A stretch of 63,060 bases of DNA from Nanobdellati archaeon. Lineage in GTDB: Archaea; Nanobdellota; Nanobdellia; Woesearchaeales; GCA-2686295. The stretch lies in NCBI GenBank assembly GCA_014384375.1, contig JACNFY010000017.1, positions 1 through 63,060 on the forward strand, read 5' to 3'. Positions 236 to 63,060 of the stretch are shown one piece after another. Each line of letters starts with the position of its first letter. Within the stretch, counting starts at the first letter, position 1. Position numbers and translations under genes: made by a program. The notes under the pieces are model-generated. The model ran no database searches, was not told where the DNA came from, and worked only from the letters and a program-made list of their open reading frames with translations.

Positions 236-424
236 ATAATACCAAATAGAGATGAGTTCATCGATTTCTTAAAGAATAATCCTAATCAGACCTATACCTC
301 TATCTCTAAACACTTTGACATCGAAATGGGGACAGTACGCGATCTCATCAAGATGTACCGCGAAAAACTTGAAATCCTCAAGATAGGCACAGCTCTAATG
401 GTGAATCTGAAGAATGAGAAATAA
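236..424 (+). pseudogene. HTH-domain reading frame without a canonical start
   Basis: From 227 (a TGA) to the TAA at 422-424 a frame stays open and encodes about 60 residues. They begin near DEFIDFLKNNPNQTYTSISK and continue as a helix-turn-helix or small winged-helix fold (SISKHFDI, then MGTVRDLIKMYR). There is no ATG, GTG or TTG before an internal ATG at about 329. A GGTGA stands 7 nt before an ATA at 236, so use of a rare ATA start cannot be excluded. Its codons (ATC, CTC, CGC) differ from the AGA/ATA-rich genes that follow. Its end overlaps the start of the surface protein by 11 nt. Either a decayed or truncated DNA-binding protein, or a real small gene with a non-standard start. Confidence 0.4.
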
Positions 425-3400: not shown

Positions 3401-6400
3401 AACAAGCACAATCCAGCTATTTTTTAACTGGACTAATGTAACATCTGATATATACTTCAACTATTACGAAGTAGCCTTAGGAAGAGAGAGATACCAAACA
3501 GAAGGATATAATAGCAGCCGAGCATGGTTTAGTGTAGGAGCCAACATCTCTATCAACCTATCTTGGAATATAACACCAGGATATGTATACTACTTCCACG
3601 TTAGAGTAGTTGATGTATTTGACAACGCAGGAAACGTAACCATAAGCAATGGAGTAATATATGAGGATAACACGCCGCCTCAGTTAGTTAATATGACACT
3701 AATAGGAACAAGTGATAACAATGCATGGACTAATAACCCTGATGAGTTAAGAGCGACATGGAACTTCACTGACAATGAAACAGGAATAAGCCACTACGAG
3801 TATGCAGTTGGAAACACGACTTATCCAGTACCAGGTTGGAATACAATAAAGAATGTAACACAAACGAATTATAGTAATGTAACAGCAGCTAGCTTAACAC
3901 TTGAACAAAACGTTTCATACTACTTCAGTGTCAGAGCCAGGAACAATTACCAGTATGGCTATGGATGGAGTGACTGGTACAGCAGTTCAGCCAGTATAAG
4001 AGTAGATACAACAACGCCAATAGGCGGAATCATCTACTACACATACGGAGAGTACACTGCAAACTCCATCACAATGATATATGGAACAGGAGAAGACATC
4101 TACTCAGGAATTGACAGAGCAGCGTTGATGGAAGCAACAGCTCCGATGCAACCAGACAATGGAGGAACCTGTGGGGGATACTCAAGTTATAGTGAGATAA
4201 CAAACGCAACCTTAACAAATCCTAATGAAACAACCACTTATACATATAATGGATTAGCGAATGGAAATTGTTACAAATTCGCTTTGTATGTCTGGGATGA
4301 AGCAGGTAACAAAGCAGAGTACTACCTAGGAAACCAGATATATAATGTGAGCGTTGACACTACACCACCAACAGCTTTCTCAGTAACAGATGATGGTCAC
4401 CTAACAGCTTCAAAAACCATGGACTTCAGCTGGGACGGAGCGAATGACCCGGAGTCAGGGATAGATTACTACGAATACACTTTAACAGATTCAGATGGAA
4501 CAACAATAGTTGGCTGGGCTAATAACGGATTGACAACATCTATCCAGCTAGCAAATCTAAACCTGACTGATGAAAATACCTATTACTTGAGTGTAAGAGC
4601 ATGGAACAACATCGGATTACAAACAAACAGCACTAGTGACGGAATAATCTACTTAGACTTATCAACACCTGCTTCATTAACAGTGATGAGCGTTGACAGT
4701 GATACTAACTCAGGCGATGGATGGCTTGACTTGACTAATTCAACAAATACTACAATAAACTTGACAGGAGAGCAAGGATTAAGCTGCGTATGGTCATACT
4801 ATGACATAGCATTCACACAACCAAGTAATGCAACGAACTATTCATGGTGGTGTGATAACTCTGCTAACGCGACAGGACAATATCAATGCATAGCAACCGG
4901 CATAACAGAAGAAGAATGGAACTTACACGTAACATGTAGAGATACCGCAGGCAACAAACAGACACAGAATGAGAACACAGACTTCACATTCATAAAAGAG
5001 AATGCAGCTCCGCAGATAAACATAACATACCCAGAGAACAACTCAGTAGTGAATGGAGTGATAAACGCAAGTGCAACAATATGGGATGCCTCATCCTACA
5101 ATGCAACCTATGAACTAAAAGATCCAGATAATAATAGCGTAATGCTTTCCGGAGTGATAAATGACTCAAGTGCAATAGAACTAGATTTGACTAATTTAGA
5201 AGGAGAATATACTTTCATAGTAAATGCGACAGATGCTTACAATCACAGCAGTAATGCATCGATAAGTTTCGTAGTAGATAACAATATACCAACAGTGAAT
5301 ATAGTCTTAAGTAAAGCTTACTATGGCCAGGACTTCAACATCACATTAAGAGCTACATTATTCACAAACTTGACGTACAACATAACAAATACCTCAGGGA
5401 ATATAATCCAAAGTAGCAGATGGGATTATAGTCTCTTACAAAACACGACAACTATGAGCAACTTAAGCGTGAATCTCACACCTCTATCTGAAGAAACATA
5501 CACAATAACAGCAGCAGCAATAGACAATGAATCAAATACAACAACAGATACAGAGACCTTCACAGTTGACAAGACAGCACCCGAATATAAGGGAGCAGTA
5601 GATATAGAGCCTGATGAGCCGCACGAGAATGACTCGATAACATTATACCTGAACTGGAAAGAGCTTGTATCACTAGATGAGATATGGGTTAGACACAATG
5701 CTAACGGCTCATTTGTAAACTACACAGCAACAGCAACAACTCCGGGAACACAGATATATGAGAACGCCACGAGATACAAAATAGATATACTTGCATATCT
5801 AACAACAGTTAATGATACTATAACATACACATGGTATGCAAGGGATAGTGCAGGAAACGAGGCAAACTACTCAACACAGACACTACAGGTAGAAAACAGA
5901 CCGCCAATAATAACAACTACGAGCCTACCAGATGCATTTGAAGGAGCATTGTATGAACAGTTTATATACTTTGAAGACCTTGACGATACCCAGAAAAACA
6001 TCACATTCTTCAACTGTACAGTAGATGGACCAGCAGGAATGAATGCAACAATACAATCCAACACAATATGCTTAGTTGAATGGGGAAACCCAGTTGCTGG
6101 AAACTACTCAGTCAACATAACAGTGAGTGATTACTTGAATGGGGGATTGCTAAATAGCACGATTGGTGAATTCAACCTTTCGGTCCCACCGTCAGCGACT
6201 CAGAACAATACAGTGAACACAAGCCATACAATGACATTTGAATATTCAGTAAATGGAACAGTGACTAGCTCAACAACTACGACAGGCGATGTAAACATAA
6301 CACTACCAGAGGCGAACCTATACACAGTGACTTTCGAGGTAGATAATTTGATAATAAGTACTGATAACTTCAACGTCACAAACAACATGGATGTGTTCTT

Positions 6401-7643
6401 CCAGTTACTAAACAACAACACAATAGATAATAACAACACAGACATAGGTCCAAATAGAACCTATAGGCCATTGGAGGCATACGCATTCAGAATAACCTCG
6501 AGTCACAACGGAAACTACACCATAAGCTTCAACTACTCGGAGTATGGTGTTTCAGACACAAGCAGGTTGACGATATTCAAGTTCGGATATAATGAAAATA
6601 CTGGAGAGATAAACTACTCAGATCAGCAGAACATGACAACAAGTCTAAACACTTCAAGCTTGTTAGTATACACAACAGTGTCAAACTTCTCGACTTTCAT
6701 ATTAGCATATGACACGTCAGAAGGAAGTGGTGATTCACCACCGCCATCAAATCCACCTTCAGGCGGTAGAAGAAGGAGCTCATCATCGTTTTACTATGTA
6801 CCACCTGCTACTTGCGATGATAACATCTCAAACCAAGGAGAGATAGGAGTAGATTGTGGAGGTCCATGCGACCCATGCCAAACCTGTCACGACAGGGTAC
6901 AAAACCAGGGAGAGACCGGAGTTGACTGTGGAGGACCTTGTCTGCCATGTCAACCAGCGACCTGCACAGATGGTGTAATTAATGATGGAGAAGAAGGAGT
7001 TGATTGTGGAGGTCCATGCCTACCATGTCCTGGATGCGAAAATAACTATTTAGATGAAGGAGAGGAAGGTATGGACTGCGGAGGAGTATGTCCTAATGAA
7101 TGCGAGGTAGAGATAGTGGAGACAGTAGTTACAGAAACACAGATAGTTGAAACACCTGTCAAGACAACACCTTCATATGTGTGGCTGATAATAATAGGTA
7201 TAACCCTCTTCGGAGGAATAACCGCTCTCTGGATATATAACAGAGAAGAGAGAGTAGTGAAGGAAACAACTGTCAGAGCAGAAGTAGAGGAGAAGGAATT
7301 AGAAGAGTTGAAGGATGAAGAGCAAGACATAATGAGCAGATATGTCTACAATTATATGTCACAAGGACTATCAGAGAATGATATAAAGAACCAGCTAGTG
7401 GTTGATGGCTTCAAAGAACATCACATTAATACAGTGATGGTAGCCGTGTTAAGAGACAAAAAGATTCTTGAGATACAGGAGTACTTTGACAACTATGCAG
7501 ATCAAGGATACACTGTTGATGAGTTGAAGGATTGGGTACTAAGTCAAGGAGTAGATCAAAACTTACTTGAGGAAGCATTGGCTAAAAGAGGAGTAAATGA
7601 TAACCAAGGACCAGCAGATAAAGGAAGTGTTGTCCAACAGTAG
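414..7643 (+). CDS. Giant membrane-anchored surface protein with Ig-like modules and DCGG Cys-rich repeats
   Basis: This 2409-residue protein has an N-terminal hydrophobic segment (residues about 5-24) acting as signal or anchor. A very long extracellular part follows, rich in Asn-X-Ser/Thr sequons and built from Ig/FN3-like modules with recurring TTPP and DTTPP linkers. One region of about 270 residues is present twice (nt about 1320-2120 and 2460-3320). After a Pro/Ser/Arg-rich linker come four Cys-rich repeats of about 23 residues with a VDCGGPC core (nt 6808-7110). A single membrane helix (about 2255-2276) and a charged cytoplasmic tail of about 130 residues end the protein; the tail holds two similar helical repeats. 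GGTGA at 400-404 supports the start. It is probably an N-glycosylated adhesin or envelope protein; the ligand is unknown. Confidence 0.85.
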   Translation: MRNKRIIGVGIIIAIILAIFVLANVSTVTLLAPSDNLWTNETNNTLEFSFRFIADTATETCTLEIDGEGTNCRTNASTQNDTDTVLYSSCPLVNGTHTWNVRCGAGEVRGTERTIKIDTITPSTSHDAPGGWQSSDVTVTFTNSSDDGLSPITIYSCIGASCAPTAQSSVTATQEGNNTIRYYSEDEAGNQESISTTYVALDKTNLAISLSAPADATTFLNQNTFNFTFTPTDALSGTLDCDLKINGVINQTNSSVTNNTETKFENIRLGDGSYTWLINCSDLAGNDNVSETRTLTVDVAPHKPVVFTPDAVTSASRVNIYGYVNRSQYTTNVTVYAQQLDLGRQNVNSTLTTEVSNQTGTAIINDSQVAGSDYFYINTNGGALPTGFGVGNFTEFSNHQPSYWIRYQIIAVENYGDKYKINISPTLREAINITDSVTAYNGSRPTGWFNISVPLYPGNNTMKVTASRLGTYGLVSDVFYIHSDQTEPTINLTLVTNYSTNTPTIQFTVSDDYGVNISTILVNISNSTNSTIYNSTQVDCTSLPLCELQPTLGNGYYNITVNITDFVGSRNTTNKTFLVNTQEPTIQLVSPSDNYEEDMTNNLTLSFNATDLFDSTLNCSLYINSALNQTNETVQTGTTTLFNLYNLSDATYSWNVTCQNSVISTNTSETRSFTIDNIPDKAKVWPYEVVTIENTTNIVGVIGKNNTLINATVEQGELMPYYNTTTSTQDSTLNVSTTTLRQAVSQGEYCIYINKTLNSSFLPGRWIEFSNHNKSDAYFARYNITNQTNDWGEGENQFYTQVCLQENLTANVSQYTLIGVYDTEYPKGWFNITVSLRTGANNITLVGSRLGLTGPTSDLIEVFRDDENPIVNLSTMQGNSTISTPTLNFILQDDYNVSLQTLFVNITNGSSNTVHVWSGGTAYNTSNWTMGANVSCTNSLPTWRNCTLIPTLNDGIYNFTFMVNDSVNYQNITYFNNFIVETTPPNILVVEDEGITTSTIQLFFNWTNVTSDIYFNYYEVALGRERYQTEGYNSSRAWFSVGANISINLSWNITPGYVYYFHVRVVDVFDNAGNVTISNGVIYEDNTPPQLVNMTLIGTSDNNAWTNNPDELRATWNFTDNETGISHYEYAVGNTTYPVPGWNTIKNVTQTNYSNVTAASLTLEQNVSYYFSVRARNNYQYGYGWSDWYSSSASIRVDTTTPIGGIIYYTYGEYTANSITMIYGTGEDIYSGIDRAALMEATAPMQPDNGGTCGGYSSYSEITNATLTNPNETTTYTYNGLANGNCYKFALYVWDEAGNKAEYYLGNQIYNVSVDTTPPTAFSVTDDGHLTASKTMDFSWDGANDPESGIDYYEYTLTDSDGTTIVGWANNGLTTSIQLANLNLTDENTYYLSVRAWNNIGLQTNSTSDGIIYLDLSTPASLTVMSVDSDTNSGDGWLDLTNSTNTTINLTGEQGLSCVWSYYDIAFTQPSNATNYSWWCDNSANATGQYQCIATGITEEEWNLHVTCRDTAGNKQTQNENTDFTFIKENAAPQINITYPENNSVVNGVINASATIWDASSYNATYELKDPDNNSVMLSGVINDSSAIELDLTNLEGEYTFIVNATDAYNHSSNASISFVVDNNIPTVNIVLSKAYYGQDFNITLRATLFTNLTYNITNTSGNIIQSSRWDYSLLQNTTTMSNLSVNLTPLSEETYTITAAAIDNESNTTTDTETFTVDKTAPEYKGAVDIEPDEPHENDSITLYLNWKELVSLDEIWVRHNANGSFVNYTATATTPGTQIYENATRYKIDILAYLTTVNDTITYTWYARDSAGNEANYSTQTLQVENRPPIITTTSLPDAFEGALYEQFIYFEDLDDTQKNITFFNCTVDGPAGMNATIQSNTICLVEWGNPVAGNYSVNITVSDYLNGGLLNSTIGEFNLSVPPSATQNNTVNTSHTMTFEYSVNGTVTSSTTTTGDVNITLPEANLYTVTFEVDNLIISTDNFNVTNNMDVFFQLLNNNTIDNNNTDIGPNRTYRPLEAYAFRITSSHNGNYTISFNYSEYGVSDTSRLTIFKFGYNENTGEINYSDQQNMTTSLNTSSLLVYTTVSNFSTFILAYDTSEGSGDSPPPSNPPSGGRRRSSSSFYYVPPATCDDNISNQGEIGVDCGGPCDPCQTCHDRVQNQGETGVDCGGPCLPCQPATCTDGVINDGEEGVDCGGPCLPCPGCENNYLDEGEEGMDCGGVCPNECEVEIVETVVTETQIVETPVKTTPSYVWLIIIGITLFGGITALWIYNREERVVKETTVRAEVEEKELEELKDEEQDIMSRYVYNYMSQGLSENDIKNQLVVDGFKEHHINTVMVAVLRDKKILEIQEYFDNYADQGYTVDELKDWVLSQGVDQNLLEEALAKRGVNDNQGPADKGSVVQQ

Positions 7644-49656: not shown

Positions 49657-51732
49657 ATGTGTGGGATTATAGGAGTATTCAGAAGAAAAGATGCTTTGAG
49701 ACTTGTAAGGCAAGGCATAACTATTTTGCAGAATAGAGGCAGGGATGGGAATGGATTTTATGAAGAAGATAATTTCTCGTTAGGACACTGCCTGCACTCA
49801 ATCGTTGGAAGAGTAAAACAACCTTTGACAGACAAGGATGTTTTTGTGTCTAACTGTGAGATTTATAATTGGAAAGAACTCAACGAGAAATATAATCTCA
49901 AAGCAAGAAACGATTCTGAGATGCTATTCAAATTATTGCAGAAAAAAGGCGTAAGTGAAAAAACTCTTGACGAGTTGGATGGTGTCTTTGCATTCGCATA
50001 CATATCAAAAAACAAGCTCTGGGTGGCAAGAGACATAATAGGTGTAAAACCTGTCTGGTACAGCCACACGAACGGCTTTTACTTTGCATCTGAAAAAAAA
50101 GCTCTTGAAAAACTAGGTATTATAGACATCAACGAGTTGAATCCAAGAAAGATAATAGAGTATGATTTGAGAAAAGACAAACTAAAATTCATAGAAAGAG
50201 AATTTTTTTCAATAGAGCCAGAGATAAAAGAATCAATTGAGATTATATCTAGAAAACTAGAACTGAAGATAAAGGAATCAATCTCAAAGAGAATTCCACA
50301 GAGAAAGTTTGGAATATTGTTCTCAGGCGGTATAGACTCAACAGTTTTAGCGCTAATCCTGAAACAATTCAAGCAGGAATTCACATGCTACACAGCAGTG
50401 CTTGATGATCCTGGGCTAAAAGAGCCACAAGACCTTGTTTACGCAAAGAAAGTAGCGAAAGATCTAGGGTTAAATCTTAAAGTCATAAAGATAAAACTCT
50501 CAGAGGTTGAGAATTATCTGAGAAAAATCGTTCCATTAATAGAAGACTCAAACGTTGTAAAAGTTGGAGTTGCACTCACTTTCTACACTGCTTGCGAACA
50601 AGCAAAGAAAGATGGCTGCAAGGTATTGTTCTCAGGGCTTGGAAGTGAGGAAATCTTTGCAGGCTACCAGAGACACAGAGAATCGTACAATGTTAACAAT
50701 GAATGTGTCTCAGGACTTTTGAAGATGTATGAAAGAGACCTTTACAGGGATGACGTCATCACTATGTATAACTGCATAGAACTAAGAATTCCTTTCTTAG
50801 ACAAGGGCTTAGTAGAGTATTCATTGAGAATTTCTGGGAAGCACAAGCTATATGACAATCATGAAAAATACATTTTAAGAGTTGTTGCTAAGAATCTAAG
50901 ATTAAAGGAAGAGTTCGCACTAAGAAAGAAAAAAGCAGCTCAATACGGCAGCAACTTTCATAAAGCAATACAAAAGCTAACAAACAAAAATAAATTCAAA
51001 ACAAAGTCAGAATATCTGAGAACTTTTTATCCAACGCATAATGTCAAGCTAGGAGCTTTAATAAGTTCTGGAAAAGATAGTGTGTTTGCAATGTACACAA
51101 TGATTAAGCAGAACTATTCAGTTGAGTGTATGATTACTTTAGAAAGCGAGAATCTGGATTCTTTCATGTTCCACACACCAACAGTAAAACTAGTTAGATT
51201 ACAATCAGAAGCGACTGGAATTCCCTTGGTCACATACCAAACAAAGGGAGAGAAAGAAAAAGAGTTAGAAGACTTGAAAAAAGCTATAAAGAAAGCGAAA
51301 GAGGAATATAAGATAGAAGGAGTTATAACAGGAGCTATTTTTTCCAACTATCAGAGAAACAGGGTAGAAAAGGTATGTGATTCATTATCATTGAAAATCT
51401 TCTCACCATTATGGCATATCAACCAAGAAACAGAGATGAGGGAAATAGTGAGAGAAGGATTTGAATTCGTGATTAGCAAAGTAGCTGCTGAAGGTTTGAA
51501 CAAAAACTGGCTTAACAAAAAAATCGACAACAAAATGATTAACAAGCTGGTTGAGTTAAATCAAAAGATCGGCTTCAATGTAGCTGGCGAAGGCGGAGAA
51601 TTCGAAACACTGGTTCTTAACGGTCCAGTATTCAATAAGAAAATAGAAATAAAGAAATCAAAAATAATCGAAGAAGATGAGAATACAGCGACGCTTGTAG
51701 TAGAGAAAGCAGAACTTCTTCGCAAAGTTTAA
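49657..51732 (+). CDS. Asparagine-synthetase-like amidotransferase fused to diphthine-ammonia ligase domain
   Basis: 691 residues in three domains. Residues 1-150 are a class II glutaminase: Cys2 in MCGIIGVF, LQNRGRDGNGFY, NCEIYNWKEL, NDSEMLFKLL, VARDIIGVKPVWY. Residues about 215-455 are an AsnB-type ATP-pyrophosphatase with the PP-loop SGGIDS (223-228) and FSGLGSEEIFAGYQRH. Residues about 463-691 are a second ATP-pyrophosphatase of the Dph6 type: SSGKDS (470-475), EGVITGAIFSNYQRNRVE and the signature GEGGEFETLVLNGP. Dph6 makes diphthamide on aEF-2 from diphthine, ATP and ammonium. The fusion suggests glutamine-derived ammonia could be delivered to it, or that both activities coexist; this is inference. 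Confidence 0.9.
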   Translation: MCGIIGVFRRKDALRLVRQGITILQNRGRDGNGFYEEDNFSLGHCLHSIVGRVKQPLTDKDVFVSNCEIYNWKELNEKYNLKARNDSEMLFKLLQKKGVSEKTLDELDGVFAFAYISKNKLWVARDIIGVKPVWYSHTNGFYFASEKKALEKLGIIDINELNPRKIIEYDLRKDKLKFIEREFFSIEPEIKESIEIISRKLELKIKESISKRIPQRKFGILFSGGIDSTVLALILKQFKQEFTCYTAVLDDPGLKEPQDLVYAKKVAKDLGLNLKVIKIKLSEVENYLRKIVPLIEDSNVVKVGVALTFYTACEQAKKDGCKVLFSGLGSEEIFAGYQRHRESYNVNNECVSGLLKMYERDLYRDDVITMYNCIELRIPFLDKGLVEYSLRISGKHKLYDNHEKYILRVVAKNLRLKEEFALRKKKAAQYGSNFHKAIQKLTNKNKFKTKSEYLRTFYPTHNVKLGALISSGKDSVFAMYTMIKQNYSVECMITLESENLDSFMFHTPTVKLVRLQSEATGIPLVTYQTKGEKEKELEDLKKAIKKAKEEYKIEGVITGAIFSNYQRNRVEKVCDSLSLKIFSPLWHINQETEMREIVREGFEFVISKVAAEGLNKNWLNKKIDNKMINKLVELNQKIGFNVAGEGGEFETLVLNGPVFNKKIEIKKSKIIEEDENTATLVVEKAELLRKV

Positions 51733-53768: not shown

Positions 53769-55535
53769 GTGAAGGCCACGAAGATATACTCGGTTGGTAA
53801 GCTAAATTTAAGCACATTTCTTCTGTTAGTTATTTTGAGTGTTTCTATCTTCTCTGCTGCGACTAATATAACTTTGAATGACAATATTTCTTACAATAGT
53901 TCTAATAATTCATTAAATATAACTTTGAATTTATCTTTCAATAATACTTTAGTAAATACTTCAATAAACATTACCAACACAACCACGATTAATGAAACAA
54001 ATGTTTCAGTCAATCTGTCTTCTAATAAAATAAAAAATATTCTTCCGCCTGGTTTATTGAAAAAGCTTCATAAGGACTTGGAGGGTTTATCTTATGAAGC
54101 AGAGGCAAAGGTTATTGTTCAGTTAAAAGATAAAAATTCAAGACACAAAATCAAGGATAAAGTAATTAAAGGAAAATCAAAAATTAGTAGAGATAGGAAC
54201 TTTATTTTTGCAGATGCTTTTGGTTCTGATGTTGTAGATGTTGTTTCTGATGAAGATGTTGTTATGGTCTGGCCTGACTTGGAGGTTACATCTTTCTTGG
54301 ATGATGCAGTAGACCAGATTCATGCAGACAGCCTATGGAATTTTAGTTTGAATGGCTCAGGTGTTAAGATAGCTGTATTGGATACAGGCGTTGATGCTTC
54401 TCATGAAATGCTTAATGGCAGGGTTATTTCTCAGGTTGATTTCACAGGTTCAGGCACTGGAGATTTTTATGGCCATGGAACCCATGTTGCAGGCATCGCT
54501 TCAGGAAACGGGTTATATAAGGGAGTAGCTTTTGATTCTCAGATTTATGATGTGAAAGTTCTTAATGATGAAGGAGTTGGTTATCTTTCATGGTTGATTG
54601 ATGGTATTGATTATGCCATTAGTGAGAATGTTGATGTTATATCTCTTAGTTTAGGAGCTATTTATTCAGGCACTCCTGAAAACCAGCTTAATAGTCCTGA
54701 AATCCTGAAAATTGAAGAAGCAATAAGCAACGGCATAACAGTTGTAATAGCCTCAGGCAACTGTGGCAGTGGTGTTTGCGGCGGTTTTGAAGGAGTCACC
54801 ACGCCAGGCATTACTCGTAATGCAATCACCGTTGGAACAGTTGATGACGCCAATGAATGGGCATACTTTAGTTCTGGAGATACAATTGATGATTATGTTA
54901 AGCCTGATATGGTTGCTCCGGGTGTTGATATTTGTAGTGCGGTTCCTTTAGATTATGATTGTAAGACAGGCACTTCTATGAGCACTCCCTTTGTCAGTGG
55001 AGCAGTTGCTTTGCTTTTACAACATAATAGTTCTTTGAATCCCACACATATTAAAGACATATTTGAAGATGGGGCTCTAGATTTGGGCGATTCTGGCAAG
55101 GATGTTCTTTATGGTAGCGGTCTGCTTGATTTGAGCAATCTAAACTTTGAGATTAGCCCTGTTGAAATAATCCCTGATGAGTATACTATCTCCTTTTCTG
55201 ACTTTGAGATTAGAAAAGAAGGCAAAGTTACTATAATATACCACAACAAAGAGACCTGTTACAGGAAAAAAGACTGCAAACCAAGAAAAATCAAAGTAAG
55301 ATTTGAAAGCGAAGAGCTAGACCGCACATTCCAATCAGAGAAAACCAAAACAATCCCAAATGACAAATACAAATCCTATAAATTCAAGACAACCTTCAAC
55401 CTGCCAGGCAAACACCTGCTCAAAATAACAATCGAAGAAGACAACGAACTAATCGAAGAAATAAACACCTTCATAGACGTAAAATCAAACTTTTTGGTTA
55501 ATTCATTAGGCACATTGAGGTTAAAGATAAGATGA
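53769..55535 (+). CDS. Secreted subtilisin-like serine protease (S8)
   Basis: 588 residues from a GTG. A signal peptide (LSTFLLLVILSVSIFSA) precedes an Asn/Thr-rich, sequon-rich stretch and an I9-like propeptide (about 105-170). The catalytic domain has Asp205 in IAVLDTGVDASHE, His236 in GHGTHVAGIASG, the oxyanion Asn in IASGNCGSG and Ser403 in GTSMSTPFVSGAVALLL. A beta domain of about 110 residues ends the protein. The triad is complete, so it is probably active outside the cell. Codon use changes near nt 55241 from T-ending to A/C-ending codons. The stop overlaps the start of a propeller fragment (ATGA). Confidence 0.92.
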   Translation: MKATKIYSVGKLNLSTFLLLVILSVSIFSAATNITLNDNISYNSSNNSLNITLNLSFNNTLVNTSINITNTTTINETNVSVNLSSNKIKNILPPGLLKKLHKDLEGLSYEAEAKVIVQLKDKNSRHKIKDKVIKGKSKISRDRNFIFADAFGSDVVDVVSDEDVVMVWPDLEVTSFLDDAVDQIHADSLWNFSLNGSGVKIAVLDTGVDASHEMLNGRVISQVDFTGSGTGDFYGHGTHVAGIASGNGLYKGVAFDSQIYDVKVLNDEGVGYLSWLIDGIDYAISENVDVISLSLGAIYSGTPENQLNSPEILKIEEAISNGITVVIASGNCGSGVCGGFEGVTTPGITRNAITVGTVDDANEWAYFSSGDTIDDYVKPDMVAPGVDICSAVPLDYDCKTGTSMSTPFVSGAVALLLQHNSSLNPTHIKDIFEDGALDLGDSGKDVLYGSGLLDLSNLNFEISPVEIIPDEYTISFSDFEIRKEGKVTIIYHNKETCYRKKDCKPRKIKVRFESEELDRTFQSEKTKTIPNDKYKSYKFKTTFNLPGKHLLKITIEEDNELIEEINTFIDVKSNFLVNSLGTLRLKIR

Positions 55536-55909
55536 GAAAAAACAAAGGAGATTTGTCAAGTTCTTCTAGTGCAGACGAATTCACCTTCCCTAGCAATGGC
55601 GAAACAGATGGCTCTGACCATCCTGCTTTTGCAGATTTAGATGGTGATGGCAAACAAGAACTAATTGTTGGAACCAAAAAAATTGTTTTTATTGGTAATG
55701 TTTCCGAAGAAAGAGGAAGAGTTTTCTCCTTCAACTTCGATAAACAAGGTAAGGATAAGGCTTGGAAGAGTACGTCTTATAATAAAAAAATTGGAATATA
55801 CTTACCTGTTATTGGAACGCCAACCATTGTTGACATAAACGGTAACGGAAACAAGGAAGTAATATTTGGCGATATCCATGAAAAGATTATAGGAGGTAGA
55901 TATTTATGA
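55532..55909 (+). pseudogene. FG-GAP/VCBS propeller fragment
   Basis: 125 residues with no signal peptide. They match the internal propeller segment of the downstream secreted proteins: KGDL..., DHPAFADLDGDGKQELIVGT with a DxDGD calcium loop, RGRVFSFNFDKQGKDKAW, YLPVIGTPTIVDINGNGNKEVIFGD. Upstream in the same frame, but after a stop, RH lies ten residues before KGDL, the same spacing as in the YRHD...KGDL start of the intact copies. A one-base insertion (or two-base deletion) near 55503-55515 would join the frame to the subtilase. It is probably the broken propeller of that protease, or a separate truncated copy. The frame ends where the next small membrane gene starts. Confidence 0.6.
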
Positions 55910-56181
55910 AAACTATAACACAATTATGGAGTAAGTTAAAGTATTGGCAGAAAGGAATATCTGTTGGTTTTTTGGGTTACATTTTATATTTTATAATAAT
56001 TGTCATTGTTCCTTCAATTTGGGATTTTAATTGTGGTTTCATCGCAGAGCACATACCTTGTTCTGCAACAGAATATTTTGCAGCCGTATTTTTTATGTTT
56101 GTGGCTTGGTTGAAGTATGGTGTACTTCTGATAATTGCAGGAGGAGTAATTGGGTCAATAATGGATTACTTAAAGAGATAA
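55906..56181 (+). CDS. Small membrane protein of the YWQKG type
   Basis: 91 residues. N-terminal LWSKLKYWQKGISVGFLGYI is a cytoplasmic amphipathic stretch leading into helix 1; helices follow around 58-75 (AVFFMFVAWLKYGVLLIIAG) with a Cys-containing loop (DFNCGFIAEHIPC) between. Another protein in this array (60030-60374) has the same W..L.YWQKG...GFL start. AGGAGG precedes the ATG. It overlaps the propeller fragment by 4 nt and its stop shares one base with the ATG of the next gene. Function unknown; partner or immunity protein of a secreted neighbour is speculation. Confidence 0.65.
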   Translation: MKTITQLWSKLKYWQKGISVGFLGYILYFIIIVIVPSIWDFNCGFIAEHIPCSATEYFAAVFFMFVAWLKYGVLLIIAGGVIGSIMDYLKR

Positions 56182-57968
56182 TGAAAATAAAAAGCGTTCA
56201 CATATTATTGTACTTTGTAATAGTTTCATTTACAATTATTAATGTGAATGCTTATAAAATGACTCCTCCTGATGAAGTAACTCACCAGTATATTACTAAT
56301 CAATCTAGGCGTATATGGAGTCTCATACCATATGAAATAATATTTCATCTTAATAATTCAGTAACCAAAGAATTAGATTACCGTGGAAAGGCAAATTTTG
56401 ATTATGAAGATGATATCATTACTGGTTCGGCAGAAGAAGATTTGGCATCAGATACTTTGAGCGCACTTTTCGGTAATCATTTTTGGCAACCCGACGATCC
56501 AGATACTTTGATGTTAGGTAATGATGATTATAATGATGGACTTGCAGAAAGAGATAGTTCCTATAGAACTGCGCTTGATTATTGGTATAAACCTTGCTCT
56601 TTTTGGGAGAATGATTGTGATGATGTTATAAACAATTATTTAAAAGGCAATATTGATGAATCTTATTATTGGCTTGGCAGAATCGCACATTTGTTGGAGG
56701 ATGCCGCTCAACCATCGCATGTTCTCCTTGATCCACACTTACCTGGTGATGATTCTGAATTGGAAATCTGGTCTGGGGATAATTTTCATAGCTATCAAGG
56801 AGTCAATTACGCTGGAAAACAATACAATTACGAAGATTTAATAGACAATTTTGATTGGTCTTCTGTCGAACCAACAAGAGCTCCTGACAGACAATATATT
56901 GAACTTTTCAGATTGTTTTGGTATACTGCACAAAAAACACAATATTGGGCTAGTGATGATGTAGATGCGAATTATGTTTATACCGATTTGAATGATGTTG
57001 AACAGAGTTGGTCTTGTAGTGGAAACGATAATCTTAATTTATGGGCTGATGAAGGTTATACAAGCTGTAGTGATTTTATAAGCACTGGTTTAAACGATTC
57101 TAATGTCGAACAGGAAGCCAACGCTACTATCCCTCACGCTATGAAAGCAGTTGCAGGTCTCTACAGATTGTTCTGGGATGCTGTTCATATTGATTGGCCT
57201 ACTTATCGTCATGATAACTTAAGAACTGGTACCACTGCTTTCAAAGGTGATTTATCCGAAGATACCGATGCTGAAGAGTTCACGTTCCCTATTAATGAGG
57301 ATACTGATAGTTCCAACAACTTGGCGTTCGCTGATTTGAACAAGGACGGAGATCAAGAACTGATAATTGGAACTAATAAAGATTTTTTAATTGAAAACAA
57401 TGAGGAGTATAGGGGTAGAGTTTTCACTTTTGAATTCAATAAGAATGATAGATATACTTTAGGATGGAGCACTTCTAATGAGAAGAGTGCTTCTTGGTTT
57501 AAGCCTGTTGTTGCTACTCCTGTAATCTCAGATATTAATAATGATGGTTTTAAGGAAATTATTTTTGGTGATAAAAGCGGGAAGATTTGGGTTTTGAATC
57601 CTGACGGAGAACCCCTTCCTCTTACTGAAGACGAGGATTATGTTCTTCCTAGAGGGGATAACAATTCTGCTATGTTCACTTCTTGGGCTATAGAAGATAT
57701 AGATTTAGATGGCACAAAAGAACTATTATTCGTTGAAAAGACAGACTCCACTACTCCATTATATGTTTTCGATGCTAAGATATATGTTTACAACCTCACA
57801 GAAGACGAGCTTCTAGAAGAATGGCAAGCTGATTTAGGTTCAACTTATGGCAGTGGAAGTTCTTCTGACCCTGCAATTGCAGACATCGATTCTGATGGTG
57901 ATATGGATATTATCGTTGGCACTCTATATGATGGAGATAAGAAAATAATATTCGCGGAGGTAATGTAA
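56181..57968 (+). CDS. Secreted zinc phospholipase C-like protein with beta-propeller repeats
   Basis: 595 residues from the ATG at 56181. A signal peptide ends around residue 24 (IINVNA). The first domain (25-330) resembles zinc-dependent phospholipase C / S1-P1 nuclease: His35 in VTHQYITNQSRRIW, an EEDLASD acidic block, and YYWLGRIAHLLEDAAQPSH (His170, Asp174, His180) followed by a further His186. The second part starts with WPTYRHDNLRTGTTAFKGDL and has FG-GAP/VCBS propeller repeats with DxDxDG loops. It stops abruptly after DIIVGTLYDG, where the longer copy at 60378 continues for hundreds of residues. Probably secreted and membrane- or lipid-targeted; substrate unknown. Confidence 0.75.
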   Translation: MKIKSVHILLYFVIVSFTIINVNAYKMTPPDEVTHQYITNQSRRIWSLIPYEIIFHLNNSVTKELDYRGKANFDYEDDIITGSAEEDLASDTLSALFGNHFWQPDDPDTLMLGNDDYNDGLAERDSSYRTALDYWYKPCSFWENDCDDVINNYLKGNIDESYYWLGRIAHLLEDAAQPSHVLLDPHLPGDDSELEIWSGDNFHSYQGVNYAGKQYNYEDLIDNFDWSSVEPTRAPDRQYIELFRLFWYTAQKTQYWASDDVDANYVYTDLNDVEQSWSCSGNDNLNLWADEGYTSCSDFISTGLNDSNVEQEANATIPHAMKAVAGLYRLFWDAVHIDWPTYRHDNLRTGTTAFKGDLSEDTDAEEFTFPINEDTDSSNNLAFADLNKDGDQELIIGTNKDFLIENNEEYRGRVFTFEFNKNDRYTLGWSTSNEKSASWFKPVVATPVISDINNDGFKEIIFGDKSGKIWVLNPDGEPLPLTEDEDYVLPRGDNNSAMFTSWAIEDIDLDGTKELLFVEKTDSTTPLYVFDAKIYVYNLTEDELLEEWQADLGSTYGSGSSSDPAIADIDSDGDMDIIVGTLYDGDKKIIFAEVM

Positions 57969-57970
57969 AA

Positions 57971-58273
57971 ATGAACATAAAAGAAAAATGGAAAGGTCTT
58001 TCTTTTAGGACTAAAGGAATGTATCTTGGAATTATATTAAATATTTTTATTGGTCTAGCAACATTCAAGGGTTTGTTAAATGATTTACTTGGAGAAAGAT
58101 TCGGCTATGCTTTTGTGCTTTTTTATTCCTATCCAGGTGTTTTCGCGTTTTATTTTTGTAAAGCTTTAGAATGTATTGTTTTAGGATTTATAATCAACTT
58201 TATTTGGGTAGTTGTTAGTGGTGGTGCAATTGGATTATTGTTCGCTGTTATCATTGAAAAAATTAAAAAATGA
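57971..58273 (+). CDS. Small membrane protein, YWQKG-like
   Basis: 100 residues beginning KEKWKGLSFRTKGMYLGIIL, a diverged form of the W..LSYWQKG start of its neighbours, then helices LNIFIGLATF, YAFVLFYSYPGVFAFYF and FIINFIWVVVSGGAIGLLFAVII. GGAGG (57956-57960) lies inside the end of the truncated propeller gene. The stop overlaps the next ATG (ATGA). Function unknown. Confidence 0.65.
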   Translation: MNIKEKWKGLSFRTKGMYLGIILNIFIGLATFKGLLNDLLGERFGYAFVLFYSYPGVFAFYFCKALECIVLGFIINFIWVVVSGGAIGLLFAVIIEKIKK

Positions 58274-59607
58274 AATTTCAGAAATTGGTACTTATATTGG
58301 TTTTTGTTTTGATCAGTTTAAGTAATGTTGTGGCTTCTTCAGTTTCCAATGCTGTACCTGTTTCTGAAACCATTGTTAGAAACAATTCAACATTTCTTGT
58401 TGATGGGTGGGATGAATTACCTTTCAAACATTTGAAGGCAAATAAGTCTTGGGTTGAATATGTCAATACAAATTACGATCCTTCTCCTAATTGGATTACA
58501 ATCCTTTATGATGAGAACAATGAAAAAATATCGCCCAAGTGTCTAAGTTATTCTGCTGCAACTGTTGCTGACTGGTTTTCTCTTGAGACGGGCGAAGTTC
58601 TTGATACTTACACAAGCTACCTCAACAATAGAATTGAATATGGTCATAATCCTAGGGAATTAGAGGCCATTTACCATGATAGGCACACTTTTTATAATAC
58701 ATATACCTATTTGTTTTTTGATGCTTCCGTAACTTGGGAGCAAATTCCTTATAATTTAAAAGGATATGTTGATATTCTTACTAATCCACCTTCAGATTGG
58801 ATAAACGTTACTGATCCTGATTTAGGTTCAAATTATCTTCATACTGTGAAGCCTGGTGAATACTTGCCAGGGGGAGAGACAGAAAACTTGAAAAGGTCAA
58901 TTCCTATTGTTTCGAATAAAGAACAAGTACAAAGCGCTCTGGAGAGATATGGTATTTTATATGCTCATTTAGACAGCACTCTTGTTGGTTGGGACTTACT
59001 TGGTATTGAGTTTCCAATACATGCAGTGACATTAATTGGTTATGGTAATTATGGTGGAGAAGATGTTTTTTGGATTCATGATACATATGATAGACCTTAT
59101 GTTAACTCATCTTATCAGGATGTAAGATATAAAGCAATTGATGTATTTGATTTAGATTCAATTTATGCTTTCTTTGATCCAACATGGTCCACGTACCGCC
59201 ATGATAACAGGCGTACTGGCTCTTCTACTTTCAAGGGTGACTTATCCAACGAAACAAGCCCTGATGACTTCACTTTTCCTGGTGATGGTCAGACTGATGG
59301 CTTGGATCATCCGGCTTTCGCAGACTTGGATGGTGATGGTTATCAAGAAATTATCGTTGGCACGAAGAATGATGTTTTAATTGGTAATTCTTCTGAAGCA
59401 AGAGGAAGAGTATTCGCATACAACTTTGATAAACAAGGCAAGGATAAAGCGTGGTGGTCTACGACTAATGAGGATATTGGTTTATATCTTCCTGTTATTG
59501 GAACACCAACAGTAGCGGATTTGAATAATGATGGCAATAAAGAGGTAATCTTCGGAGATACTTATGGCAGGATGTGGGTTTTGAATAATAAGGGTGATAA
59601 ACTATGA
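58270..59607 (+). CDS. Secreted papain-like cysteine peptidase domain with propeller repeats
   Basis: 445 residues. Signal peptide LVLILVFVLISLSNVVA. The N-terminal domain has a candidate nucleophile in SPKCLSYSAATVADWF (Cys91) at the head of a helix, and a candidate general base in PIHAVTLIGYGNYGGEDVFW (His251) followed by IHDTYD. This is the C-H-(N/D) order and HAV-x-x-x-GYG signature of papain-fold peptidases (C1/C39-like). From STYRHDNRRTG on it is a propeller with ADLDGDG calcium loops that ends after about 120 residues at WVLNNKGDKL, exactly where the next small membrane gene begins. An 86-bp block is identical to the paralogue downstream. Confidence 0.75.
   Translation: MKFQKLVLILVFVLISLSNVVASSVSNAVPVSETIVRNNSTFLVDGWDELPFKHLKANKSWVEYVNTNYDPSPNWITILYDENNEKISPKCLSYSAATVADWFSLETGEVLDTYTSYLNNRIEYGHNPRELEAIYHDRHTFYNTYTYLFFDASVTWEQIPYNLKGYVDILTNPPSDWINVTDPDLGSNYLHTVKPGEYLPGGETENLKRSIPIVSNKEQVQSALERYGILYAHLDSTLVGWDLLGIEFPIHAVTLIGYGNYGGEDVFWIHDTYDRPYVNSSYQDVRYKAIDVFDLDSIYAFFDPTWSTYRHDNRRTGSSTFKGDLSNETSPDDFTFPGDGQTDGLDHPAFADLDGDGYQEIIVGTKNDVLIGNSSEARGRVFAYNFDKQGKDKAWWSTTNEDIGLYLPVIGTPTVADLNNDGNKEVIFGDTYGRMWVLNNKGDKL
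59236..59321 (+). repeat. 86-bp block identical to 61287-61372
   Basis: Encodes the start of the propeller (from GDLSNETSPDDFTF to HPAFA) and is identical at DNA level to the paralogous position downstream; 17 more matching bases follow after a single mismatch. Confidence 0.85.
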
Positions 59608-60023
59608 AGAAAATAAATAAATTATTGTGGTTATCAGTAGCTCTGATAATTATTGTTGATATAATTAGTTATTTTACTGCAGGTACAACGCAAAGAAACT
59701 TAAGAATTAATATTCCTCTCTTTATAATTTTTGTATTGGCGACTCTACTTTTTTTATTCTCAATAAGAAATTTTATAATGCAAAATCAGAAAGGGTCGAT
59801 CATAGGTTTGATTATAGGATTCATTCTTGGAGCTATTAGTTTTGGTGTTGGAATGTTTGCGTTATTTTTCTTGTTCCCGATATATGGCTTAATATGGGCT
59901 ATCGTTGGATGTGCCGGAGAAGACTGTTGGGGATTCATGATTATGTTAAGTCCAGTCATATTAGGATTAACAGGAATGCTAATAGGCGCATATTTACAAA
60001 ATAAAAGAACTAATCAGAGGTAA
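59604..60023 (+). CDS. Small four-helix membrane protein
   Basis: 139 residues with four hydrophobic helices (LLWLSVALIIIVDIISYF, LFIIFVLATLLFLFSI, SIIGLIIGFILGAISFGVGMF, IMLSPVILGLTGMLIGAYL) and a Cys pair in a short loop (VGCAGEDCWGF). It lacks the WQKG start of its neighbours. Its ATG overlaps the propeller gene stop by 4 nt, with GGGTGA upstream. No family recognised. Confidence 0.65.
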   Translation: MKKINKLLWLSVALIIIVDIISYFTAGTTQRNLRINIPLFIIFVLATLLFLFSIRNFIMQNQKGSIIGLIIGFILGAISFGVGMFALFFLFPIYGLIWAIVGCAGEDCWGFMIMLSPVILGLTGMLIGAYLQNKRTNQR

Positions 60024-60029
60024 AAAACA

Positions 60030-60374
60030 ATGAAAAAAATAACTAAATTTTGGAGAAGACTAAGCTATTGGCAAAAGGGAGGAATTATAGGGTTTTTAAT
60101 TCCAATTTGTTTGTTAGTGATTGGTTTCTTATTAAACCACTTACTTTTTTTTAAAGATAATTCTATAAACCTACTTATAGTTGATATATTCTACTTCCCT
60201 ATGGGATTATTCTCATATTTTTTTGATTTATTTGTTAAGAAAGGAGTTATAGAATGTCAGAGTGAGGCATGTGCATTGGGAGGTTACCATATGTTAATTG
60301 GATTATTTGCTCCAATTATTTATGCTCTAATTGGCATTGGTATTGGTTTATTCATTCAAAGATACAATAAATAA
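60030..60374 (+). CDS. Small membrane protein of the YWQKG type
   Basis: 114 residues. The start FWRRLSYWQKGGIIGFLIPI is closely similar to the protein at 55906-56181 and leads into helix 1. A Cys-containing loop (ECQSEACALGGYH) precedes the last helix (IGLFAPIIYALIGIGIGLFI). Six nt after the preceding gene and three nt before the next. Function unknown. Confidence 0.65.
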   Translation: MKKITKFWRRLSYWQKGGIIGFLIPICLLVIGFLLNHLLFFKDNSINLLIVDIFYFPMGLFSYFFDLFVKKGVIECQSEACALGGYHMLIGLFAPIIYALIGIGIGLFIQRYNK

Positions 60375-60377
60375 AAA

Positions 60378-63060
60378 ATGTTTAAGAAAGAGATTTGTTC
60401 CATCGGACTGATTATGTTTCTTCTAGCCATAACTCCTGTGTATGCAAGAATACATACTGATGCACCGGTTGGATCAGAATTGGATTATTTAATTCCAGAA
60501 TGGGACAGACTTCCGTTTAAGGACCAGAGATATAACGCAAGTTGGATTGATTATGTAAATTCGGCTTATGGTGTTAATTGGGAGAAGCCATCAAATCCAA
60601 GAGTACCAAAGTGCCTAAGCTATGGTGCGGCAACAGTTAATGATTGGGTAAAATTAACCACAGGTATGACCTTAGGAACTTACTCAAATTTTGTAAACAA
60701 TCGAACTGAAAATGGGACAAATCCACGGCTGCTCGAATCAATCTATCATGATTCTTCTCCTTCTATATGTTTTATAGTACCAACTCTCACGTATTGCTAT
60801 GCTGCATTTTATAGAGATAGCGTGACAGGTGAAAGAGTACCTTTTAACACAAAAGGTTATGCTGATTTGTTAACTAATCCTCCTTCAGATTGGTTATACG
60901 AACCAGACCCGATAATATCAGAAATTAATTATGATGTAATGAATGGTGATCTTTTAGATGGATATGAATTCATACCAATAGATACAAACGCCGAAAGTTT
61001 GAAAGAAGCAATTAGAAAATATGGGATTATTTATGCACACATGACCTTTTTAGAAATTCCAGAATTTTTCTTTCCTCTTCACGCTATTACTCTTATTGGA
61101 TATAATGATACGGATTCTTCTACAGATTTTTGGGCTCATGATAGTTATGATGGAGAGGATTTCAGTAATTTTTCTAGGTATAGTATTGTTGACCAATCAG
61201 AAATTGACACTGCGTGGGCATTTTTTGATCCTCAGTGGCCTACCTATAGACATGACAATCGAAGAACTGGCTCTACTACTTTCAAAGGTGACTTATCCAA
61301 CGAAACAAGCCCTGATGACTTCACTTTTCCTGGTGATGGTCAGACTGATGGCTTGGATCATCCGGCTTTCGCTGACTTGGATGGTGATGGCAAACAAGAA
61401 ATTATTGTGGGCACTAAAAACAGTGTTTATATTAATAATGCTTCAGAGAACAGAGGCAGGGTTTTCGCCTTGTATTCTGATGGAAGTGGATTTGACGATG
61501 ATTGGACTACTACTGAGGGTGAGACTGATGTTGGTTTGTATCTGCCTGTTATTGGCACTCCGACAATAACTGATATTAATAATAATGGTGATAAAGAGAT
61601 AGTGTTTGGGGATATATATGGTCGTTTCTGGGTTCTAAACAGTCAGGGTGCTCCTGTATTAGAGTACCCGTATTATATCCATCCAAGAGAGAAGGATAAT
61701 TCCACGAGAATCACAAGATGGGCTGTTGAGGATATTGATTTGGATGGTGTTAAAGAGTTGTTGTTTGTTGAACGCTCGAATAATTTTTCTTCTTTAGCTG
61801 GTTTCGATGCAAAGATATACGCTTATAATCTTTCTGGGGATGAATTAGTTGAGGAGTGGTCTGCTCCTTTAGGAACTGCTTATGCTTATGGTACTGGTAG
61901 TAGTAATGGTGATCCTGCTATTGCTGATTTAAACAATAATGGTTCTATGGAGATTCTTGTTGGTACTGTCTATGACGGTATAAGAATGTATAATGGTGGT
62001 AGTGGCAGTTTGATAACTAGTTTTAATTTTAATAGTGCTGCTGGTCCTGTCACTATTGCTGATATTGACAGGGATAACAAGTATGAATTTATTTTCAACA
62101 CTAATTGTGTTACTGGAGCTTCCTGCAGCACCATTCCTAGTTTCAATGCTACTTTTGTTTTCAGTGGTGAGGATAACACTCAAGAATGGAATACTACAAC
62201 TTCGAGTAATTGGTGGCCTTATGGTCCTGTAGCTGTTGCTGATTTGGTAGGTGATTCAAAATTAGAAGTGGTTGTTGCTTTGAATAAAAATTGGAACCCT
62301 ACTGATGGTAAGATTGTAATACTTAATAGTTCTGATGGAAATGAGCTTTACAGCTTTACTGAAAGCGGCTCTCTAGACACAATTCAGAGCGCTGTAATCG
62401 CTGCCGACATTGATCAGAGTTCTTCTGGTAAAGAAATATTGTTTATGACTGAAGATGGGTATTTATATGTTTTAAGCAATACTGCTCAACTGCTTTGGAA
62501 AAAGTTTATTTCAGCCACTCCAACAAATGGTCCTATTGTTGGCGACTTTGATGGTGATGGCAGTGCAGAAGTTATACTCTCTCATAAAGGGTCAATTGAA
62601 GGAAGTTCTTTCTCTGCTGAAGAGCTTGAAATGTTCAATAAATGGAAGGTTTTGCATAAATATGTAGATGTCTATGGCAAAGGAATATTGGAGGAGAATG
62701 GCATTGACCTTTCTGCTTCTATTTTCAAAGCACATTCAATATCAGGAACCTCTATTGAAATCATCGACGGCCTAAACCATCAACCAATACTTAACAACCT
62801 AGACGACATCATAACAATCGAAGGAAATCTTGTTCAAATTAACGCTCAAGCAACTGATGAAGATGGCGACAATATAACTTATTATTACAGCTCTCCGATT
62901 AATTCTTCTGGTGTTTGGGAAACAACTCATGGCAACAGTACAGGAACTTATGAGATTTTAATAACATCGAGTGATGGAAACCTTTCAGATTACCAGCTTA
63001 TAACCTTAACTATGCGAAAGAAAGTGTATAGCGAAGTGACATATGTCACTAGTTGCTTTT
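60378..63060 (+). CDS. Secreted papain-like protein with long FG-GAP/VCBS propeller and Ig-like tail (runs off window)
   Basis: The frame is open from ATG 60378 to the window end (894 residues, 3' end missing). Signal peptide GLIMFLLAITPVYA. The peptidase-like domain parallels the previous gene: PKCLSYGAATVNDW (Cys79), LHAITLIGYND (His235), FWAHDSYD. PTYRHDNRRTGSTTFKGDL opens the propeller; seven or more repeats with D-x-[DN]-x-[DN]-G loops follow (ADLDGDGKQEIIVGT, TDINNNGDKEIVFGD, EDIDLDGVKELLFVE, ADLNNNGSMEILVGT, GDFDGDGSAEVIL). From about nt 62770 a cadherin/Ig-like tail begins (HQPILNNLDDIITIEGN). It is the only full-length propeller in the array and shows what the other copies lost. Confidence 0.8.
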   Translation, partial: MFKKEICSIGLIMFLLAITPVYARIHTDAPVGSELDYLIPEWDRLPFKDQRYNASWIDYVNSAYGVNWEKPSNPRVPKCLSYGAATVNDWVKLTTGMTLGTYSNFVNNRTENGTNPRLLESIYHDSSPSICFIVPTLTYCYAAFYRDSVTGERVPFNTKGYADLLTNPPSDWLYEPDPIISEINYDVMNGDLLDGYEFIPIDTNAESLKEAIRKYGIIYAHMTFLEIPEFFFPLHAITLIGYNDTDSSTDFWAHDSYDGEDFSNFSRYSIVDQSEIDTAWAFFDPQWPTYRHDNRRTGSTTFKGDLSNETSPDDFTFPGDGQTDGLDHPAFADLDGDGKQEIIVGTKNSVYINNASENRGRVFALYSDGSGFDDDWTTTEGETDVGLYLPVIGTPTITDINNNGDKEIVFGDIYGRFWVLNSQGAPVLEYPYYIHPREKDNSTRITRWAVEDIDLDGVKELLFVERSNNFSSLAGFDAKIYAYNLSGDELVEEWSAPLGTAYAYGTGSSNGDPAIADLNNNGSMEILVGTVYDGIRMYNGGSGSLITSFNFNSAAGPVTIADIDRDNKYEFIFNTNCVTGASCSTIPSFNATFVFSGEDNTQEWNTTTSSNWWPYGPVAVADLVGDSKLEVVVALNKNWNPTDGKIVILNSSDGNELYSFTESGSLDTIQSAVIAADIDQSSSGKEILFMTEDGYLYVLSNTAQLLWKKFISATPTNGPIVGDFDGDGSAEVILSHKGSIEGSSFSAEELEMFNKWKVLHKYVDVYGKGILEENGIDLSASIFKAHSISGTSIEIIDGLNHQPILNNLDDIITIEGNLVQINAQATDEDGDNITYYYSSPINSSGVWETTHGNSTGTYEILITSSDGNLSDYQLITLTMRKKVYSEVTYVTSCF
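61287..61372 (+). repeat. 86-bp block identical to 59236-59321
   Basis: Second copy of the propeller-start block, embedded in otherwise clearly diverged paralogous sequence. Confidence 0.85.

What the first reader, a model, noticed from the sequence alone, without database searches (positions are those of the whole stretch)
53769..63060. Array of secreted enzymes alternating with small membrane proteins, sharing one propeller module
Nine reading frames are mostly joined by start/stop overlaps or gaps of a few nt. Different N-terminal catalytic domains (subtilase, zinc phospholipase C-like, two papain-like) are joined to the same YRHD...KGDL propeller, and each is followed by one or two small membrane proteins, three of them with the same or a diverged W..LSYWQKG start. 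This modular layout is reminiscent of polymorphic effector/immunity or effector/anchor systems, but with the variable domain at the N terminus. It could be a predation, symbiosis or defence system of an epibiotic archaeon.
Basis: partly seen in the sequence, partly recalled or inferred. Interest (0 to 1): 0.72.

Follow-up and report, generated by a model that had tools for sequence, protein, structure and literature searches.

The report
Archaeal effector array with swappable front ends
This small archaeon carries a row of secreted enzyme genes that share one propeller-shaped carrier, and the DNA of its relatives shows that different enzyme front ends, each with its own small partner gene, have been swapped onto that carrier by recombination, much as bacteria swap toxins but in mirror-image order.

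Summary
The array is real, but two details change. Only the last gene (60378-63060, open at the contig end) has a full propeller. The others keep 5'-side stubs, and the subtilase is not fused to one. Each small membrane gene belongs with the enzyme that follows it, not the one before.

About 20 related loci (Woesearchaeota-type MAGs) share a constant frame: a secreted ~190-aa protein, the propeller carrier, and a secreted ~700-aa protein. Between them sits an exchangeable module: partner gene plus N-terminal subtilase, phospholipase C-like or papain-like domain. Stubs upstream of the module match the first part of the full propeller (73-95% nucleotide identity) although the neighbouring enzyme domains are unlike. 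In one genome five loci have 86-93% identical leader genes but 43-52% (unrelated-level) modules. The two papain-like genes in the window share a 125-nt tract (122 identical) at the propeller start.

Best reading: a mirror image of CdiA/Rhs orphan arrays, with variable domain N-terminal, partner upstream and retired modules stacked upstream. Exchange is well supported. Toxin/immunity function is inferred: one subtilase partner carries a subtilase propeptide, but the WQKG membrane partners are shared by two enzyme types and have distant relatives elsewhere.

The parts
53769..55535 (+). secreted subtilase (S8) with signal region, prodomain and own C-terminal region; not fused to a propeller
   Evidence: PF00082 E 4.1e-49; Asp/His/Ser motifs LDTGVD, GHGTHVAG and GTSMSTP intact; 54% identical to the first gene of the L072 array in another order
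55532..55909 (+). stand-alone propeller stub 1 (profile positions 17-123/578), lacks the YRHD start, ATGA-coupled on both sides
55906..56181 (+). M1: small membrane partner (WQKG type) of the following PLC-like gene
   Evidence: E 6.7e-25 to the M-family profile
56181..57968 (+). secreted Zn-dependent phospholipase C-like domain plus truncated propeller (positions 1-239)
   Evidence: family match to PDB 8cqm phospholipase C E 5.6e-5; Zn_dep_PLPC in 4 of 8 members; propeller
57971..58273 (+). M2: small membrane partner (diverged LSFRTKG) of the following papain-like gene
   Evidence: E 4.2e-19
58270..59607 (+). papain-like protein 1 plus propeller stub (positions 1-131)
   Evidence: conserved Cys, His and His-Asp
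59604..60023 (+). M3: small multi-TM protein, weakly similar to M4; possibly the partner of a lost module
60030..60374 (+). M4: small membrane partner (LSYWQKG) of papain-like protein 2
   Evidence: E 4.8e-26
60378..63060 (+). papain-like protein 2 with the only full propeller plus Ig-like part; open at the contig end
   Evidence: E 1.7e-167 to the family profile; likely continues on contig C2 (inferred)
59215..59339 (+). recombination/gene-conversion tract, copy in papain-like 1 at the start of its propeller
   Evidence: 122 of 125 nt identical to 61266-61390; other positions on that diagonal 60%
61266..61390 (+). same tract, copy in papain-like 2

Best explanation
The locus is a modular secreted-effector system of Woesearchaeota-type archaea. 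A constant carrier (FG-GAP propeller, Ig-like part, C-terminal tail) displays one exchangeable N-terminal hydrolase. Each hydrolase is encoded together with its own small upstream partner. Shown by sequence: [partner + N-domain] modules have been exchanged beneath a constant flank, with homology in the first ~100-240 codons of the propeller. A module that is displaced keeps a propeller stub and stays upstream as an orphan, still ATGA-coupled, while the newest module sits on the full carrier. Modules are thus flanked by direct repeats of the propeller start. Inferred: recombination between those repeats can delete the newest module and bring an older enzyme back onto the carrier; the enzymes act on other cells or on host cells; the partner shields the producer from its own enzyme (clearest for subtilases, whose partners are mostly lipoproteins, one carrying a subtilase propeptide).
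For: (1) Same operon frame and stubs in L051, L053, L059, L061, L067, L069, L071 and L072 as well as the window. (2) Stub versus full propeller in the same locus: 89.5%/306 nt (L051), 94%/254 and 89%/118 (L072), 95%/173 (L067), 88%/188 (L053), 84%/224 (L059), 78%/641 (L069), 73%/184 (L061). (3) L051: neighbouring subtilases are only 36% identical, yet their propellers are 89.5% nt identical; the first is 56% identical to L058 of another family, and their partners are homologous too. (4) Genome G203: five loci, leader gene 86-93% nt identical, modules 43-52%, propeller start 90-92% among three loci with different modules. (5) Window tract 122/125. (6) dN/dS of seven stub/full pairs 0.05-0.14, not neutral decay after duplication. 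(7) Partner type follows enzyme type: single-signal or lipoprotein partners 6:1 with subtilase, 1:17 with PLC or papain; Fisher p 3e-4, p 0.01 at family level. (8) L054 partner contains a subtilase propeptide, E 1e-21, ending at its boundary.
Against: No activity or neutralisation data. WQKG partners of PLC and papain modules form one loose family, unexpected for activity-specific immunity, and distant relatives lie away from the effectors. The propeptide-bearing partners (L054, L057) could be remnants of older subtilase genes. No known delivery apparatus beyond a signal peptide. Low stub dN/dS may reflect divergence before exchange rather than selection on stubs. MAG data; the array is cut by a contig end. 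The system is absent from the seven closest relatives searched.
Confidence: 0.6

Rival explanations
1. A modular secreted degradative system: exchangeable hydrolases for scavenging or for remodelling the surface of a host cell, with partners acting as anchors, chaperones or processing factors rather than immunity.
For: All N-domains are secreted hydrolases with Sec-type signals; one membrane-protein family serves both PLC and papain modules; in L062/L063 the membrane partner is in one open frame with the PLC; FG-GAP and Ig parts are typical surface-binding modules.
Against: Module exchange with stacked orphans is typical of conflict systems; partner class changes with enzyme class; one partner carries a protease propeptide.
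Confidence: 0.3
2. Decaying tandem duplicates: an ancestral enzyme-propeller gene duplicated and earlier copies are losing their propellers with no functional stack.
For: Stubs of variable length; the window subtilase is out of frame with its stub; frame-split N-domains in L069 and L072.
Against: Adjacent N-domains are unrelated or 36% identical while propellers are up to 94% nt identical; dN/dS 0.05-0.14; stubs stay open and start/stop-coupled; N-domain plus partner match other families.
Confidence: 0.08
3. Assembly artefact or MAG chimera caused by repeats.
For: The contig ends inside the last gene; several G203 contigs break in propellers.
Against: Same anatomy in about ten independent genomes from several projects.
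Confidence: 0.02

Closest known systems
CDI (CdiA-CT/CdiI) and Rhs loci with orphan toxin/immunity modules (Poole 2011 PMC3150448; Koskiniemi 2014 PMC3967940)
   Same: Large constant carrier, variable effector domain, small linked partner gene, tandem orphan modules carrying a stretch of carrier homology (522 bp at 95% in the Salmonella rhs case), exchange by homologous recombination.
   Different: Here the variable domain is N-terminal, the partner gene is upstream, orphans lie upstream of the full gene and keep the 5' side of the carrier and intact starts; no CdiB, VENN or RHS repeats; archaeal.
Polymorphic toxin systems in general (Zhang 2012 PMC3482391)
   Same: Modular effectors; papain-like peptidases and metal-dependent phospholipase/nuclease-type domains are among listed toxin domains.
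   Different: Defined by C-terminal toxin domains and known secretion routes; that paper notes a general paucity of classical systems and of immunity families in archaea.
VARTIG modules of Thermococcales (Makarova 2021 PMC8416519)
   Same: Archaeal hypervariable surface module compared by its authors with polymorphic toxins; Ig domains; recombination.
   Different: The C-terminal Ig domain varies, by exchange between species; no propeller, no N-terminal enzymes, no orphan stack.
SPEARE proteins of Nanohaloarchaeota (Hamm 2019 PMC6642349)
   Same: Secreted DPANN protein with serine protease and adhesion domains proposed to act on a host cell.
   Different: Single giant proteins with a type III restriction-enzyme domain; no module exchange, partners or arrays described.

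Membership tests
Polymorphic toxin system (CDI/Rhs type) | variable toxin domain at the C terminus of a constant carrier | tested here: not met
   variable domain is N-terminal in all full-length members
Polymorphic toxin system (CDI/Rhs type) | immunity gene directly downstream of the toxin domain | tested here: not met
   partner lies directly upstream
Polymorphic toxin system (CDI/Rhs type) | orphan modules sharing a stretch of homology with the main carrier gene | tested here: met
   73-95% nt identity stubs in eight loci plus the window, mirror-image order
Polymorphic toxin system (CDI/Rhs type) | effector domain and partner exchanged together by recombination | tested here: met
   L051/L058 comparison and the five G203 loci
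Polymorphic toxin system (CDI/Rhs type) | toxicity neutralised by the cognate immunity protein | not testable with these tools
   indirect only: propeptide in the L054 partner
CDI (CdiA/CdiB) | CdiB partner, filamentous haemagglutinin repeats, VENN motif | tested here: not met
   FG-GAP propeller carrier; no such domains in Pfam scans of the array or relatives
Rhs | RHS/YD repeats | tested here: not met
   Pfam gives only FG-GAP repeats
VARTIG | hypervariable C-terminal Ig domain | tested here: not met
   C-terminal part aligns along the whole carrier profile across loci; the N-domain varies
[quoted passage not shown]
   no restriction domain in Pfam scans; arrays of separate genes
Peptidase S8 | subtilase fold with Asp/His/Ser triad | tested here: met
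   PF00082 E 4e-49, motifs present
Zinc-dependent phospholipase C | helical PLC fold with zinc-binding His/Asp/Glu set | tested here: inconclusive
   E 5.6e-5 to PDB 8cqm; the HxxxD...H and Glu ligands align, one His ligand does not; Pfam below cut-off
Papain-like/C39-like cysteine peptidase | Cys-His-Asp/Asn triad in papain-like fold | tested here: inconclusive
   Cys79, His235 and His254-Asp255 invariant in six members; PDB E 0.037; AF2 model unusable, pLDDT 41

The most novel reading that the evidence does not exclude
A mirror-image polymorphic toxin system of DPANN archaea: N-terminal toxins with upstream immunity, stored as a last-in-first-out stack of orphan modules, where recombination between propeller repeats can remove the newest weapon and re-arm the carrier with the previous one.
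Probability: 0.38. Interest if true: 0.88.

Novelty: new variant of a known kind. Interest (0 to 1): 0.72.

Why it matters
DPANN archaea are thought to live on or off other cells, but few of their effector genes are known. This gives a defined, recurrent locus with candidate enzymes, candidate cognate partners and a visible mechanism for changing the enzyme. It would extend the logic of polymorphic effectors to an inverted gene order in archaea, and it is directly testable enzyme by enzyme in ordinary laboratory hosts.

Tried and rejected
Mobile or viral origin: no relatives in viral contigs, phages or plasmids. Known anti-phage system: PADLOC matches only subtilase-type models, to the subtilase alone. 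Genus and family comparison: no counterpart in the seven closest relatives. Papain domain by structure: AlphaFold model too poor. LIPO-B partner (L058/L051a) as a subtilase propeptide by fold: the model gives a beta-alpha-beta-beta-alpha-beta, ferredoxin-like fold (mean pLDDT 70; core 77-87), but Foldseek found only generic ferredoxin-like folds, none below E 0.001: compatible, not specific. WQKG motif as a dedicated effector partner: strong hits (E < 1e-18) are all inside modules, but four weaker relatives lie elsewhere, so the motif alone proves nothing. First genome-contig query failed for lack of conserved columns. Simple tandem duplication was rejected because of the mismatch between N-domain and propeller identity.

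Full report
Observation. The window is a whole contig (C21, 63,060 nt) of a 1.27-Mb, 95% complete archaeal genome. Nine ORFs run co-directionally at its end. Pfam confirms a subtilase (E 4e-49) and FG-GAP repeats in four ORFs. The PLC-like domain is supported by family-level comparison: PDB phospholipase C 8cqm at E 5.6e-5, with most zinc ligands aligned. The papain-like assignment rests on invariant Cys, His and His-Asp residues in six members and weak profile matches; a structure model failed. Only the last gene has the full propeller. Earlier copies stop at profile positions 123, 239 and 131 of 578, and the subtilase is separated from its stub by a frame change.

Recombination in the window. 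The two papain-like genes are 45% identical in their N-domains and their synonymous sites look randomised. Yet at the start of the propeller 122 of 125 nt are identical (59215-59339 versus 61266-61390); other positions on the same diagonal are 60% identical. This points to a recent exchange at the module boundary.

Relatives. The full propeller family (profile A5) occurs in a minority of genomes of the same order and class. Named members are MAGs deposited as Candidatus Woesearchaeota, Nanoarchaeota or Nanoarchaeia. Most loci share one frame: a secreted ~190-aa leader ending AYDxVxVxV, then a partner gene, then an N-domain joined to the full propeller and Ig-like part, then a ~700-aa secreted protein. 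The N-domain is a subtilase, PLC-like or papain-like. The papain-like domain was found in 6 of 353 genomes of the order, and in six of seven places it is joined to this propeller.

Stubs. Eight other loci carry one or more propeller stubs directly upstream of a partner gene: L051, L053, L059, L061, L067, L069, L071 and L072. They match the first part of the full propeller of the same genome at 73-95% nucleotide identity. Stub ends carry the partner's ribosome-binding site and mostly overlap its start by ATGA. The partner and N-domain are therefore flanked by direct repeats of the propeller start. Seven stub/full pairs have dN/dS of 0.05-0.14. That argues against neutral decay after a local duplication; it fits constraint on stubs, or exchange between alleles that had already diverged under constraint.

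Modules move as units. In L051 two adjacent subtilases are 36% identical although their propellers are 89.5% identical in DNA. The first is 56% identical to the subtilase of L058 in another family, and the two partners are homologous (35% over 142 aa, E 9e-29). Genome G203 has five loci whose leader genes are 86-93% identical in DNA and whose modules are 43-52%, close to unrelated; three of them, with papain, subtilase and subtilase modules, share 90-92% propeller starts. In L090 a PLC module sits on a different Ig-repeat carrier, again with an upstream carrier copy (82% over 375 nt).

Partners. Subtilase partners are mostly single-signal proteins (five of six with a lipobox-like Cys); PLC and papain partners are mostly multi-TM (6:1 versus 1:17, p 3e-4; p 0.01 by family). 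The classes were assigned by me from hydropathy and sequence. The L054 partner is a Cys-rich lipoprotein fused to a subtilase propeptide (E 1e-21; 40% identical to its own enzyme's prodomain), ending at the prodomain boundary. L057 has a similar secreted protein, which may be a remnant. Propeptides of subtilases are known as their inhibitors (general knowledge), so this is the best hint of immunity. Against a simple immunity reading, the membrane partners of PLC and papain modules belong to one loose WQKG family, and distant relatives occur outside the loci.

Comparison. The logic matches CDI and Rhs orphan arrays, where orphan modules share carrier homology (522 bp at 95% in Salmonella rhs) and recombine onto the main gene (PMC3150448, PMC3967940). 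The order is inverted: variable domain N-terminal, partner upstream, orphans upstream. By membership tests it is not CDI, Rhs, VARTIG or SPEARE. I found no paper describing it in the held library; the mBio 2019 survey of archaeal toxins is not held, so prior description cannot be excluded.

Verdict. Modular exchange under a constant carrier is well supported (my estimate 0.85). Cognate immunity (0.45) and antagonism (0.5) are inferred. The overall confidence covers the combined statement.

Noticed in passing
window 49657-51732: One 691-aa ORF joins a glutamine amidotransferase/asparagine synthase to a diphthamide synthase (Diphthami_syn_2) domain.
   Followed up: no
window 414-7643: 2409-aa protein with a single recognised Ig-like domain (Big_13), probably a giant surface protein.
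   Followed up: no
window 63030-63060 and L094 (contig C2) 9120-9183: Both contig ends carry the palindrome GTGACATATGTCAC, and the open ORF on C2 continues the Ig-like end of the carrier and then the ~700-aa protein family; probably the missing 3' part of the last gene, which would make it about 2000 aa (join inferred).
   Followed up: partly
L067 823-5565 and L074 6779-10930: A subtilase domain is inserted between propeller and Ig-like part of a PLC-propeller protein; it could be a releasing protease. The window and L072 instead have a 54%-identical stand-alone subtilase pair at the head of the array.
   Followed up: partly
L090 1-5930: The same membrane-partner/PLC module logic on an Ig-repeat carrier without propeller, with an upstream carrier copy at 82% over 375 nt.
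   Followed up: partly
L053 8323-8631: The small membrane ORF between the stub and the papain-like gene is on the opposite strand and fits the gap to within 2 nt on either side.
   Followed up: no
L062 2245-6564 and L063 2930-5997: The small membrane partner and the PLC-like enzyme lie in one open frame with no stop between them; fusion or in-frame internal start.
   Followed up: no
L095 2638-3012, L096 4450-4818, L097 3505-4137, L098 1801-2604: Distant relatives of the WQKG membrane family away from any effector locus; may be a general membrane-protein start motif in these archaea.
   Followed up: partly
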